A DNA stretch of 64,000 nucleotides from Leptolyngbyaceae cyanobacterium clean351 (GCA_027451865.1 DAIDHW010000002.1:124001-188000); one strand, 5' to 3'. Shown: positions 17,050 through 21,477, counted from the first letter of the stretch. The notes: generated by a model not told the origin, from the letters alone. A program made the numbers and translations.

Positions 17050-17130
17050 GGCTGGCCGCCGGTCACAATGTGTTTTGGTATTGATATGGTCCTCGGCATA
17101 AACCCTAAGGATTCTTAACACGCTACTGAT

Positions 17131-17165
17131 TGACATCCTCCCTGACCTGAAGGCCGGATATTCCT
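17131..17165. mobile_element. Decayed IS200/IS605-type terminal hairpin (candidate)
   Basis: The words TGACATCCTCC, CTGACCTGAAGGCCGG and ATTCCTGG occur in the order seen at ends of cyanobacterial IS200/IS605 elements, where CC-TGAA-GG forms the apex of a subterminal hairpin. The stem is imperfect here and no transposase gene is nearby, so this would be a relic. Call rests on resemblance only. Confidence 0.35.
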
Positions 17166-17181
17166 GGGGCGCTCACCTCGG

Positions 17182-17329
17182 TGGGTTCCTGGACTGAGGG
17201 CACAACCGCTAGCTCATATCTCCCAGGGTGTTACTGCCAGCATGACCTGCCGGAGGCCGCTGTAGTGGTTGCTGACAGGTTACGGCACCCAACAAACCCA
17301 CGCCATCCTTCCCTGCTGTTCAGGGCGGG
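17182..17329 (+). repeat. 148-bp noncoding repeat, copy 1 (orphan structured-RNA-like element)
   Basis: This stretch recurs at 20469-20616 in the same orientation with identical length and only scattered substitutions. Internal pairing is visible: TGGGTT near the start against AACCCA near 17296-17301, and GGAGGCC-rich small hairpins between. The pattern of conserved blocks (TATCTCCCAGGGTGTTACTG, GGTTACGGCACCCAACAAAC, GTTCAGGGCGGG) reminds me of the omega/HEARO-type RNAs that accompany IscB or TnpB genes of IS200/IS605-like elements, but no nuclease gene is adjacent. The repeat is certain; the RNA class is a guess. Confidence 0.7.
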
Positions 17330-17461
17330 GCTAGTCAAGCACCAGGGTCAAGCTGCCCAAGCAATCTTACTGTCTCTCTGCGTTTATTTAGAGTCGCGGC
17401 AATGTCCCAACGCGGTTCTATCTAAAAGGATGGGGTTGTAAACCCAATCTCGGAACCAATG
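17330..17461. other. Spacer between 148-bp repeat and Sel1 gene, hairpin present
   Basis: Noncoding. Includes a short perfect hairpin GGGTTGTAAACCC around 17428-17440 and is absent from the second repeat copy, where only 12 bases separate the 148-bp element from the Sel1 fragment. It could be the remaining 3' part of a longer element. Confidence 0.4.
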
Positions 17462-17950
17462 TTAGTGCTGATGCGAGGCCAGAAACTGGTTAATTGGCCC
17501 CGTCACTTGCTTTTCCTGCGCCATCATAGCCGCGAGCTGCTCGGCGGCATTCAGGTCTGCGGGGGAGAGCTGCTGGGCTACCTGGTCTCGAGCGGAGAGG
17601 ACAGCTTGGGATCCATTGGCTACTGCAAGGTCAAAGAGATCATAGGCAATGCGATTGTCCTGGACTACCCCTTGACCAAGGCCGTAGAGGAATCCCAGGT
17701 TGAATTGCGCGTCTGCATGCCCCTGGTGAGCAGCCTGGCGGAACCAGTAGGACCCCTGGCCTAGGGCATAGGCATAGCCAAGAACATACTCCGCGCGGGC
17801 GTTGCCGATGGATGCTTGGCTGCGCACCTCGGCCATCACGTTGGGGTCTTGGAGTTGAGTCTTGATAATGGAGCGGGTAAAGAGATCCAGATGGCCCGAC
17901 TGAGAGAAGTTGACCATCTGTTGATAGAGAAAGTCTACAGCTTGTTCCAT
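17462..17950 (-). CDS. Sel1-repeat protein lacking the signal peptide (array copy a)
   Basis: A 162-residue protein with about two recognisable Sel1 units (AEYVLGYAYALGQG, AQFNLGFLYGLGQGVVQDN), a repeat class that forms protein-binding alpha-solenoids. The upstream DNA, up to and including the ATG, matches that of copy b, but after the ATG the text goes directly to EQAVDFLYQQMV, so the roughly 30-residue signal peptide present in copies b and c is missing. The product should stay in the cytoplasm, or the gene may be a deletion derivative. It ends in the shared C-terminal block 'QVTGPINQFLAS'. Same direction as copies b and c, which lie upstream. Confidence 0.75.
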   Translation of the reverse strand: MEQAVDFLYQQMVNFSQSGHLDLFTRSIIKTQLQDPNVMAEVRSQASIGNARAEYVLGYAYALGQGSYWFRQAAHQGHADAQFNLGFLYGLGQGVVQDNRIAYDLFDLAVANGSQAVLSARDQVAQQLSPADLNAAEQLAAMMAQEKQVTGPINQFLASHQH

Positions 17951-18034
17951 AGGGCGGCTGGCGGGGGTTGATTTCTTGGGGGTGGTAATCAGACACTCTA
18001 ACAGCCGTTGACACTAATCTGAACTACCGCCGTC

Positions 18035-19012
18035 CTACGGATACGAGGCCAGAAATTGGTTAATTGGTCCAGTCACCTGATCCTCCTGCTCCATGGTGTG
18101 CGCTAGCTGCCGGGCTGCATTCAGGTCGGCTGGGGAGAGCTGCTGGGCAATTCGGTCTCGATTTGCAGCTGCTGTTTGATATCCATTCGTCACTGCAAGG
18201 TCATAGAGCGCAGAGGCAATGACATAGTTGCGGGGTACCCCCTGGCCATTGGCGTAGAGGAATCCTAGGTTGTATTGGGCATATGCATCCCCCTGGTTAG
18301 CAGCCTTGCGGAACCAGTAGGCAGCCTGGGTGTAGTCCTGGGGCACTCCCTGGCCATTGGCGTAGAGGTTTCCTAGGTTGTATTGGGCATGTGCAAGCCC
18401 CTAGTTAGCAGCCTTGCGGCACCAGTAGGCGGCCTGGGTGTAGTCCTGGGGCACCCCCTGACCTTTCGCGTAGAGGAATCCTAGGTTGTATTGGGCATAT
18501 GCAAGCCCCTGGTTAGCAGCCTTGCGGAACCAGTAGGCAGCCTGGGTGTAGTCCTGGGACACCCCTTGACCATTGGCGTAGTCAATTCCTAGGTTGTCTT
18601 CTGCACCTGCATTTCCCTGGTCAGCAGCCTTGCGGCACCAGTAGGCGGCCTGGGTGTAGTCCTGGGGCACCCTCTGGCCATTGTCGTAGAGGACTCCCAA
18701 GTTGTCTTCTGCATCTGCATACCCCTGGTCAGCAGCCTTGCGGAACCAGTAGGCAGCCTGGGTGTAGTCCCGACTCTGTAAGTAAGAGAGCCCTAGTTTG
18801 TATTGCGCCACTGCTCCCTGGACCTCGCTTATCACCTCAGGTTTTTGGAGCGTGGAGCGAATCAAGGGCACTGGCTCGCCCTGCTGCTCTGCCTTGAGGA
18901 TTTGTTGATAGAGAAGGTCTACCGTTTTGGGTGTGGGCGCCATGGTTTGGGCAAAGGCGGGCGCGGCACCAAGTAAGAAGCAAGCAATGATGGGCTTAAT
19001 GATCCGTTTCAT
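18035..19012 (-). pseudogene. Sel1-repeat protein interrupted by one TAG (array copy b)
   Basis: The start MKRIIKPIIACFLLGAAPAFAQ (ATG 19012) is a good signal peptide with an AFA cleavage site. About seven Sel1 units follow. At 18401-18403 the codon that reads CAG (Gln) in the equivalent repeats (KAANQGLAYAQ) is TAG, after which the same frame continues without further damage to the shared C-terminus 'ITGP/VTGPINQFLASYP'. So one point mutation splits an otherwise intact gene of 325 codons. A truncated secreted product of about 203 residues could still be made. Roughly 350 bases are near-identical to copy c. Confidence 0.8.
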
Positions 19013-19095
19013 AGGGCGGCTGGTGGGGGTTAATTTTTGGGGGTGGTAATCAGACACTCTAACAGCCGTTGACACTAATCTAAACTACCGCCGTC

Positions 19096-20217
19096 CTACG
19101 GATACGAGGCCAGAAATTGGTTAATTGGTCCAGTCACCTGATCCTCCTGCTCCATGGTGTGCGCTAGCTGCCGGGCTGCATTCAGGTCTGCTGGGGAGAG
19201 CTGCTGGGCAATTCGGTCTCGATTTGCAGCTGCTGTTTGATATCCATGCGTCACTGCAAAGTCATAGAGCGCAGAGGCAATGACATAGTTGCGGGGTACC
19301 CCATGGCCATTGGCGTAGAGGTTTCCTAGGTTGTATTGGGCATATGCAACCCCCTGATCGGCAGCCTTGCGGTACCAGTAGGCAGCCTGGGTGTAGTCCC
19401 GAGGCACCCCCTGGCCACCGTTGTAGAGGACTCCCAGGTTGTATTGGGCATCTGCATCCCCCTGGTTAGCAGCCTTGCGGAACCAGTAGGCAGCCTGGGT
19501 GTAGTCCTGGGGCACTCCCTGACCATGGTCGTGGAGAATTCCCAGGTTGGTTTGCGCCCTTGCATCCCCCTGGTTAGCAGCCTTGCGGTACCAGTAGGCG
19601 GCCTGGGTGTAGTCCTGGGGCACCCCCTGACCTTTGGCGTAGAGGAATCCTAGGTTGTATTGGGCATATGCAAGCCCCTGGTTAGCAGCCTTGCGGAACC
19701 AGTAAGCAGCCTGGGTGTAGTCCTGGGACACCCCTTGACCATTGGCGTAGTCAATTCCTAGGTTGTCTTCTGCACCTGCATTTCCCTGGTCAGCAGCCTT
19801 GCGGCACCAGTAGGCGGCCTGGGTGTAGTCCTGGGGCACCCCCTGGCCATTGTCGTAGAGGACTCCCAAGTTGTCTTCTGCATCTGCATACCCCTGGTCA
19901 GCAGCCTTGCGGAACCAGAAGGCAGCCTGAGTATAGTTCTGAGGTACTCCACCCCAACCCGCTGCATAGACATTACCAAGAATATCCTCGGCATCCACGT
20001 TACCGGAGGCTGCTTGGCTCTGCACCTCGGCCATCACCCGAGGGTCTTCAAGTCTGGTGTTGATGAGCCTATGCAAGGGTACCGGATTCGCTTGGTGCTC
20101 CGCCTTCAGGATTTGCTGGTAGAGGAGGTCTACAGTTTTGGATGCAGGCGCCATGGCTTGGATGAAGATGAAAGCGAGCGCCGTGTAAGGGAGGGGGGAT
20201 TGTATGATCCGCTTCAT
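19096..20217 (-). CDS. Sel1-repeat protein, intact (array copy c)
   Basis: A 373-residue protein with a short hydrophobic N-terminus (MKRIIQSPLPYTALAFIFIQ, probable signal peptide), a linker 'KTVDLLYQQILKAEHQ' and about seven 36-residue Sel1 units of the form 'AYWFRKAADQGYADAEDNLG' plus 'LYDNGQGVPQDYTQA'. Sel1 arrays act as scaffolds for protein complexes in signalling and secretion; the partner here is unknown. The 108-base DNA repeats are close enough for recombination, which explains the neighbouring broken and shortened copies. It is the most upstream and only full-length member of the array. Confidence 0.85.
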   Translation of the reverse strand: MKRIIQSPLPYTALAFIFIQAMAPASKTVDLLYQQILKAEHQANPVPLHRLINTRLEDPRVMAEVQSQAASGNVDAEDILGNVYAAGWGGVPQNYTQAAFWFRKAADQGYADAEDNLGVLYDNGQGVPQDYTQAAYWCRKAADQGNAGAEDNLGIDYANGQGVSQDYTQAAYWFRKAANQGLAYAQYNLGFLYAKGQGVPQDYTQAAYWYRKAANQGDARAQTNLGILHDHGQGVPQDYTQAAYWFRKAANQGDADAQYNLGVLYNGGQGVPRDYTQAAYWYRKAADQGVAYAQYNLGNLYANGHGVPRNYVIASALYDFAVTHGYQTAAANRDRIAQQLSPADLNAARQLAHTMEQEDQVTGPINQFLASYP

Positions 20218-20468
20218 AAAAGGGCGAGAGAGCTGGCTTCATGGTACCGCGACTAAACCAACTGAACTTGATTTCAATTATTTTAATGAGGTTTTCAACT
20301 GGAGCAGGTTTAATGAGGTTTTCAACTGGAGCAGGGGGGTTAGGGCCTACCTACGGCCCAGGTAAGTTTGAGCCCCCAGGACTAACGCGCCAGCGGTGGT
20401 TCGGCCATCAAGCCGGCTTATCTAAACATACAAATATCCTAAAGTACAGCTGTAGTCAGTCACTGCGC
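20218..20468. other. Upstream region of the Sel1 array
   Basis: Noncoding, with a 27-bp tandem duplication (listed separately) and CGGCCATCAAGCCGG, a small hairpin near 20402-20416. Probably holds the promoter of the Sel1 genes on the minus strand; no clear -10/-35 pair could be fixed. Confidence 0.35.
20282..20335. repeat. 27-bp tandem direct repeat, two copies
   Basis: TTTAATGAGGTTTTCAACTG followed by GAGCAGG is repeated perfectly at 20282-20308 and 20309-20335, upstream of Sel1 copy c. May be duplicated regulatory sequence or replication slippage. Confidence 0.9.
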
Positions 20469-20616
20469 TGGGTTCCTCGACTGAGGGCACAACTGCTAGC
20501 TCATATCTCCCAGGGTGTTACTGCCAGCATGCCCTACCGGAGGCCGCTGTGGTGATTGCTGACAGGTTACGGCACCCAACAAACCCACGCGATCCTTCCG
20601 TGCTGTTCAGGGCGGG
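20469..20616 (+). repeat. 148-bp noncoding repeat, copy 2
   Basis: Second copy of the element at 17182-17329, same orientation and length, differing by scattered substitutions. As in copy 1, a Sel1 gene 3' end follows it. The matched length without net indel, despite substitutions, suggests that the fold or the spacing is under some constraint, or that the duplication is young. Confidence 0.75.
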
Positions 20617-20628
20617 TCAGAACAAATA

Positions 20629-20691
20629 TTAGTGCTGATGCGAGGCCAGAAACTGGTTAATTGGCCCCGTCACTTGCTTTTCCTGCGCCAT
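20629..20691 (-). pseudogene. 63-bp relic of a Sel1 gene 3' end
   Basis: These 63 bases are identical to 17462-17524, the last 20 codons plus TAA of Sel1 copy a. Nothing of the gene remains upstream of this. With the adjacent 148-bp repeat it marks the far edge of a segmental duplication: the pair [148-bp element + Sel1 tail] occurs on both sides of the array. Confidence 0.85.
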
Positions 20692-20808: not shown

Positions 20809-21477
20809 GTGATGATCCATTGGCATGCTCCGGCCGGCCAGGAACTAGAACCTGAAGACCTCAAAGCAGCCCTAACAAAGCAGTTTCCCGACTATCCGAC
20901 TTGCCTTCCCACGCATGGTGCCACACTCGGGCCCTCGTTAGCTATCCAGTGGAATGGATTTCGACTCGAGGACGCTCATCATCATCATGTGGCGCAATTC
21001 AATGCCGGCGGGGTTAGCTTTAGTCGCCTGAGCTCCGATGAGGAATGGTCAAGTTTTCAAGACGCAGCCCTCCAGTTCTGGCACTGTTTTCAAGAATTAG
21101 CCGAGCCAACTGTAATTCAACCCATGGGAGTGCGCTATATCAACCGCATTCTCCTAGGATACGATGAAGAGCCGTCACTCTATATTAACTCCGCTCCCTC
21201 TGGGCTTCTGGCTATGAACCTTATAGGAGAATCATTCTTCCATCAAGATCTATACCCGGTCCCTACTCACCCCTACTCTATCAATTGGATCAGGACCATC
21301 CGGCCAGACCCGCGGGCACTTATAGTTGACATTGATGTTTTCATGACAGAGCCACTACAAGTAGATCGAATAAATCAAAATCTTCTAGTACAACGACTAA
21401 GAGAGATGCGCTGGATCGAAAATGAAGCCTTCTTTAACTGCATCACAAGATTCGCCCTAGAGCAATTTGGAGCTTGA
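20809..21477 (+). CDS. TIGR04255 family protein
   Basis: A 222-residue protein of the sporadically distributed TIGR04255 family, whose function is unknown. Diagnostic parts are 'FPDYP' early, 'FSRLSSDEEWSSFQDAALQF', 'MGVRYINRI' near residue 105, 'IRPDPRALIVDIDVF' and a C-terminal 'NEAFFNCITRFALEQFGA'. The frame begins with GTG directly after an in-frame TAA; the codons before that TAA (RLVV) look like the rest of the usual first beta-strand, so about ten N-terminal residues may have been lost by a point mutation. Two further cassette genes follow in the same direction. Base composition is less GC-rich than the flanks. Confidence 0.75.
   Translation: MMIHWHAPAGQELEPEDLKAALTKQFPDYPTCLPTHGATLGPSLAIQWNGFRLEDAHHHHVAQFNAGGVSFSRLSSDEEWSSFQDAALQFWHCFQELAEPTVIQPMGVRYINRILLGYDEEPSLYINSAPSGLLAMNLIGESFFHQDLYPVPTHPYSINWIRTIRPDPRALIVDIDVFMTEPLQVDRINQNLLVQRLREMRWIENEAFFNCITRFALEQFGA

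What the first reader, a model, noticed from the sequence alone, without database searches (positions are those of the whole stretch)
17182..20691. Orphan 148-bp structured element plus Sel1 gene tail occurs on both sides of the Sel1 array
The segment 17182-17329 recurs at 20469-20616, same strand, same length, with scattered substitutions. Each copy is followed by the same 63-base Sel1 3' end (17462-17524 and 20629-20691, identical). So a unit [element + Sel1 gene] has duplicated. The element has long-range TGGGTT/AACCCA pairing and conserved blocks reminiscent of omega/HEARO RNAs of IscB/TnpB-type transposons, and a decayed IS605-like hairpin sits just upstream of copy 1, yet no nuclease or transposase gene is present. 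It could be a non-autonomous mobile RNA element or a domesticated guide-like RNA.
Basis: partly seen in the sequence, partly recalled or inferred. Interest (0 to 1): 0.65.

Follow-up and report, generated by a model that had tools for sequence, protein, structure and literature searches.

The report
Fossil transposon carrying only guide RNA
The repeated segment is the decayed remains of a small jumping element that kept the two ends and guide-RNA part of an IS605-type transposon but lost its protein genes; it inserted once beside a Sel1 gene and was later copied with that gene's tail, and its family lives as protein-less elements in cyanobacteria and proteobacteria.

Summary
In detail: 17182-17329 recurs at 20469-20616 (95% identity), each next to an identical 63-base Sel1 tail. 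Coordinates and strand need correcting. The feature is on the minus strand, 17346 to 17130: an IS200/IS605-type element without protein genes (left end after a TTGAC target motif, remnant of the tnpB 3' tail, right end with the IS605 hairpin and terminal TCAA). The "decayed IS605-like hairpin just upstream" is this element's own right end. Copy 2 is a truncated segmental duplicate, not a second insertion.

The genome's only tnpB has homologous ends and scaffold but is frameshifted; no TnpA was found. A third copy lies on another contig. Relatives with the same architecture, different flanks and no adjacent TnpB occur in three cyanobacterial families and in beta- and gammaproteobacteria. They show strong base-pair covariation and a TATAAT box ahead of the scaffold; one sister genome also has a complete tnpA+tnpB element with matching ends. 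The window copies have lost the TATAAT and one helix, so they look like fossils.

Known kind: PATE-like IS605 derivative.

The parts
17130..17346 (-). Copy 1: protein-less IS200/IS605-type element (left end, tnpB 3'-tail remnant, right end), 217 bp
   Evidence: Homology of both ends to the C1 tnpB element and to relatives; R1 model 138.4 bits (copy 1 was in the training set)
17347..17351 (-). TTGAC target motif (putative TAM) at the left end
   Evidence: TTGAC/TTGAT/CTGAC at the same place in most relatives; ISDra2 uses TTGAT (PMC8612924)
17310..17331 (-). Left-end palindrome
   Evidence: Alignment with left ends of relatives and of complete tnpB elements
17139..17160 (-). Right-end hairpin (H5), followed by GGATGTCAA
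   Evidence: Covarying helix across the family; same end in complete tnpB elements
17110..17129 (-). Flank that would act as the guide sequence (inferred)
   Evidence: Position after TCAA, as in IS200/IS605 TnpB systems (PMC8612924); no other genomic site within 3 mismatches of TTGAC+guide
20460..20616 (-). Copy 2: truncated duplicate of the element, without target motif, left tip or recognisable right-end hairpin
   Evidence: 93% over 157 nt; R1 91.7 bits over 20423-20566
17462..17950 (-). Sel1 gene whose 3' tail adjoins copy 1
   Evidence: ORF of 162 aa; Pfam Sel1
20629..20691 (-). Duplicated 63-nt Sel1 tail adjoining copy 2
   Evidence: Identical to 17462-17524

Best explanation
Copy 1 is a decayed, non-autonomous IS200/IS605 (tnpB-type) element of about 217 bp on the minus strand: a left end inserted 3' of TTGAC, a short remnant of the tnpB 3' region, and a right end. 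The last two make up the TnpB guide-RNA (omega/reRNA) scaffold, whose guide would be the flanking DNA after TCAA. Such elements would move when a TnpA from a related complete element recognises their ends in trans (inferred); while intact they could also be transcribed and lend their scaffold to a TnpB supplied in trans (inferred). It inserted once next to a Sel1 gene; a later segmental duplication copied Sel1 tail plus element to the other side of the Sel1 array, and copy 2 then eroded (inferred from anatomy). In this genome no TnpA is found and the single tnpB is frameshifted, so both copies are now most likely immobile fossils.
For: Both ends match the only tnpB element of the genome. A third, dispersed full-length copy lies on contig C3. 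Relatives have the same two ends, a TTGAC-like motif, TCAA end and unrelated flanks. 27 of 29 strong model hits have no TnpB within 2 kb upstream (some of these hits trained the model). A sister genome has a complete tnpA+tnpB element whose left and right ends match a well-preserved orphan at 94.6% and 86.8%, with no match in between. Covariation in helices H1, H2, H4, H5 exceeds all 500 shuffles. No Y1 TnpA in the own genome. Copy 1 and copy 2 share the Sel1 flank and derived changes.
Against: No empty site is available, because no other genome of the order is held, so insertion is inferred from anatomy. The assembly is a 48-contig draft: TnpA could be missing and the tnpB frameshift could be a sequencing error. 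The TTGAC motif is not perfect in every relative.
Confidence: 0.92

Rival explanations
1. The window copy arose locally by internal deletion of a complete tnpB element at this site, rather than arriving as an already protein-less element.
For: Ends and tnpB tail are homologous to the C1 tnpB element; PATEs can arise by repeat-mediated core deletion (PMC3119063).
Against: The internal segment (H1-H2 region) is shared with tnpB-less elements in other genomes and phyla and with the C3 copy, so the protein-less form predates this insertion.
Confidence: 0.06
2. The window copies make a domesticated guide-like RNA used by the host, for example with the genome's TnpB.
For: The scaffold is homologous to that of the own tnpB; relatives show covariation.
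Against: Copy 1 has lost the TATAAT box, all of H4 and half of H1 and does not fold better than shuffles. Copy 2 lacks a recognisable right end. No second target for the guide in the genome. The only tnpB is frameshifted.
Confidence: 0.03
3. An IscB-type HEARO RNA element.
For: Superficial likeness: a structured element near an IS605-like hairpin.
Against: No Rfam HEARO match at E up to 10; sequence homology is to the 3' end of tnpB.
Confidence: 0.01
4. Ordinary duplicated spacer DNA with no mobile origin.
For: The two window copies did arise by segmental duplication.
Against: A third dispersed copy, IS605-type ends, and many relatives with unrelated flanks.
Confidence: 0.01

Closest known systems
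PATE-like IS605 element of Halanaerobium hydrogeniformans (PMC7290912)
   Same: About 270 nt; left-end hairpin, no tnpA, last 58 nt of tnpB, whole right end.
   Different: Described as one copy in one genome; here a multi-copy family shared by cyanobacteria and proteobacteria, with covariation measured.
PATEs of Haloquadratum walsbyi (PMC3119063)
   Same: Protein-less elements with near-terminal palindromes related to IS605-type transposons, no target duplication, target oligonucleotide at one end.
   Different: Archaeal and unrelated in sequence as far as tested by anatomy only; guide-RNA content was not considered in that paper's passages read here.
ISDra2 TnpB-reRNA system (PMC8612924)
   Same: The own tnpB is most similar among natural solved proteins to ISDra2 TnpB; reRNA from tnpB 3' end plus right end with guide from the flank; TAM TTGAT against TTGAC here.
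   Different: The window element has no tnpB or tnpA of its own.
HEARO (IscB omega RNA)
   Same: Guide RNA of a transposon-encoded nuclease, next to IS605-like ends (general knowledge).
   Different: No model match; the homologous nuclease is TnpB, with the scaffold at its 3' end.

Membership tests
PATE / non-autonomous IS200/IS605 element | Near-terminal palindromes homologous to those of complete IS605-type elements | tested here: met
   Ends match the C1 tnpB element and, in the family, complete tnpA+tnpB elements
PATE / non-autonomous IS200/IS605 element | No transposase gene within the element | tested here: met
   217 bp without tnpA or tnpB body; only OrfB_IS605 gene of the genome is on C1
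PATE / non-autonomous IS200/IS605 element | Dispersed copies with unrelated flanks, no target duplication, target motif at one end | tested here: met
   C3 copy and relatives; for the window pair alone, duplication explains the two copies
PATE / non-autonomous IS200/IS605 element | Mobilised by a TnpA in trans | not testable with these tools
   Matching ends in a genome with intact TnpA make it plausible; needs an excision assay
TnpB guide RNA (omega/reRNA) | Scaffold homologous to tnpB 3' end plus right end | tested here: met
   Homology to the C1 tnpB right end
TnpB guide RNA (omega/reRNA) | Conserved secondary structure | tested here: inconclusive
   Met for the family (H1, H2, H4, H5); window copy 1 lacks H4 and half of H1
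TnpB guide RNA (omega/reRNA) | Transcribed and bound by TnpB | not testable with these tools
   No expression data; TATAAT lost in window copies
HEARO (IscB omega RNA) | Match to the Rfam HEARO covariance model | tested here: not met
   None at gathering threshold over the window or at E up to 10 at either copy

The most novel reading that the evidence does not exclude
The window copies are fossils of a long-lived, horizontally spreading lineage of 'guide-RNA-only' transposons in cyanobacteria and proteobacteria. These elements carry no protein genes but keep a promoter-like box and a structurally selected TnpB guide-RNA scaffold, and so borrow both TnpA (to move) and TnpB (to cut the emptied donor site and restore themselves) from complete elements in trans.
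Probability: 0.35. Interest if true: 0.65.

Novelty: new member of a known kind. Interest (0 to 1): 0.36.

Why it matters
For the window, it settles an apparent orphan RNA as an IS605-derived fossil plus a segmental duplication. For the field, the wider family offers natural elements that kept the TnpB guide-RNA part after losing the nuclease gene, with covariation and a TATAAT box next to the scaffold. They allow a direct test of whether TnpB guide RNAs act in trans to retain non-autonomous elements.

Tried and rejected
- HEARO or another Rfam family: only sub-threshold, chance-like matches.
- Single-sequence folding as evidence of structure: no better than shuffles on either strand.
- TGGGTT/AACCCA long-range pairing: not conserved in the family.
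- Automatic RNAalifold on the 27-element alignment gave only two short helices, so the helices were drawn by hand from members; two hand-drawn helices (H3, H4b) did not beat the shuffles clearly.
- Sigma-70 scan: no full promoter in a well-preserved relative or in the window; the promoter claim for relatives rests on the TATAAT box alone.
- Exact 22-mer from copy 1 in genome contigs: nothing; a degenerate 30-mer from the family worked.
- Phage collection: no match with the window copy. Most plasmid and all E. coli matches are right ends only, several annotated as TnpB elements.
- Literature: no paper found in the held library describing this orphan family; subscription papers are mostly not held, so this is weak evidence of novelty.

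Full report
Observation. The 148-nt segment 17182-17329 recurs on the same strand at 20469-20616 with 95% identity, and the ungapped match extends to 157 nt at 93%. The 63 bases 17462-17524 and 20629-20691 are identical. The spacing between element and Sel1 tail is 132 nt at copy 1 but 12 nt at copy 2. At copy 1 the tail belongs to a whole Sel1 ORF (17462-17950, minus strand; Pfam Sel1); at copy 2 only the tail remains.

Own genome. A search with the minus-strand segment 17129-17331 gave five places: the two window copies, a full-length gapped match on contig C3 (67%), and two adjacent matches at the 3' end of a tnpB on contig C1. The C1 locus also shows a left-end palindrome upstream of tnpB. 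This is the only OrfB_IS605 gene in the genome. It is split by an apparent frameshift (overlapping ORFs L003 324-764 and 557-1588). Its C-terminal part has the OrfB_IS605 and Cas12f1-like TNB domains, and among natural proteins its best solved relative is TnpB of entry 8bf8/8h1j, which I identify from general knowledge as ISDra2 TnpB. No Y1 TnpA was found, although control genomes rang.

Anatomy on the minus strand. From 17351: TTGAC, then the left end with its palindrome (GCCCCGCCCTGAACAGCAGGGAAGG), an internal part, AGGAACCCACCG, and the right-end hairpin (TATCCGGCCTTCAGGTCAGGGA), ending GGATGTCAA at 17130. In ISDra2 the reRNA derives from the tnpB 3' end plus right end, with a guide of about 16 nt from the flanking DNA (PMC8612924). 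The guide position would therefore be minus-strand 17129-17110 (inference).

Family. In 390 genomes of the class, 16 matched by DNA similarity. Aligned, the relatives share both ends, a TTGAC-like 5' motif, TCAA at the 3' end, and unrelated flanks. A covariance model (R1) found 29 places with at least 90 bits in six genomes of three families; nine of its sequences trained the model. Upstream sequence was fetched and compared with the own TnpB. TnpBs as distant as 31% identity were detected elsewhere in this test, yet 27 of the 29 strong places have no TnpB body within about 2 kb upstream. One is the own tnpB element and one lies too near a contig end to judge. A degenerate 30-mer from the internal part hit a Thermosynechococcus MAG, several betaproteobacteria (Yanghanlia, Thiomonas, Tepidimonas, Aquaspirillum, Uliginosibacterium, two Alcaligenaceae MAGs) and one contig of the viral collection. 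Plasmids of Allochromatium tepidum (90%) and Paenalcaligenes faecalis (96%) carry the element too. Next to the loci tested, only the tnpB tail and not the body was found. Protein-less elements are thus a shared architecture, not a local accident.

Partner elements. One sister genome (G111) with seven similar orphan copies also has a 142-aa TnpA and six TnpB matches. Its complete element (L155) matches a well-preserved orphan at the left end (94.6% over 56 nt) and at the right end (86.8% over 91 nt), with nothing matching in between. This is what mobilisation in trans requires, but the movement itself is inferred.

Structure. Across 27 distinct elements, helices H1 (90% of cells paired, 23 double changes), H2 (95%, 3), H4 (93%, 12) and H5 (91%, 11) exceed all 500 column shuffles, and exceed slid pairings in percentage paired. 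I drew these helices from members of the alignment and the rows are related, so the control is not a probability; RNAalifold alone recovered little on this gappy alignment. The double changes in H1 and H4 are nevertheless hard to explain without selection on pairing, either in orphans or in their ancestors. In most relatives a TATAAT-like box lies just before H1, though a full sigma-70 scan found no -35 match. Copy 1 has lost the TATAAT, all of H4 and half of the H1 pairs, and does not fold better than shuffles. It reads as a fossil.

History of the locus. Copy 1 keeps the target motif and both ends. Copy 2 lacks the target motif and left tip and has no recognisable right-end hairpin. Both share derived changes against the family and the same Sel1 flank. 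The simplest history is one insertion beside a Sel1 gene, then a segmental duplication of [Sel1 tail + element], then erosion of copy 2. This order is inferred.

Comparison. PATEs were described in Haloquadratum (PMC3119063). A PATE-like sequence of the same make-up (28 nt of left end, last 58 nt of tnpB, whole right end, 271 nt) was described in Halanaerobium (PMC7290912). The window element belongs with these. HEARO is excluded by the Rfam tests and by the tnpB homology. I did not find, in the held library, a description of a guide-RNA-bearing orphan lineage shared across phyla. Whether those RNAs work with TnpB in trans is the open, testable question. Interest for the window copies alone is low; the family raises it somewhat.

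Noticed in passing
window 18035-19075 (-): The middle Sel1 gene is split by one in-frame stop (TAG where neighbouring repeats read CAG, near 18402), leaving a pseudogene between two Sel1 ORFs.
   Followed up: partly
window 20282-20335: Perfect 27-nt tandem duplication upstream of the large Sel1 gene.
   Followed up: no
L085-L112, L163-L174 (relatives): In most relatives a palindrome such as GGACGGCGCAGCCGTCC lies directly before the TATAAT box; it also occurs in the left end of a complete tnpA+tnpB element (L110/L156), so it may be an operator or another end feature.
   Followed up: no
G000:C1:488395-488520 (L084, L123): A fifth, weak match to the guide-RNA model (39 bits) about 3-4 kb from the tnpB element, with no TnpB found next to it; possibly another decayed right end.
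   Followed up: partly
window 17330-17461: The spacer between copy 1 and the Sel1 tail (132 nt) is missing from copy 2; it contains a short hairpin GGGTTTACAACCC followed by T-rich sequence that scans as a weak terminator on the minus strand, as expected after a Sel1 gene.
   Followed up: no
window 20809-21477 (+): ORF of 222 aa next to copy 2 with no Pfam match.
   Followed up: partly
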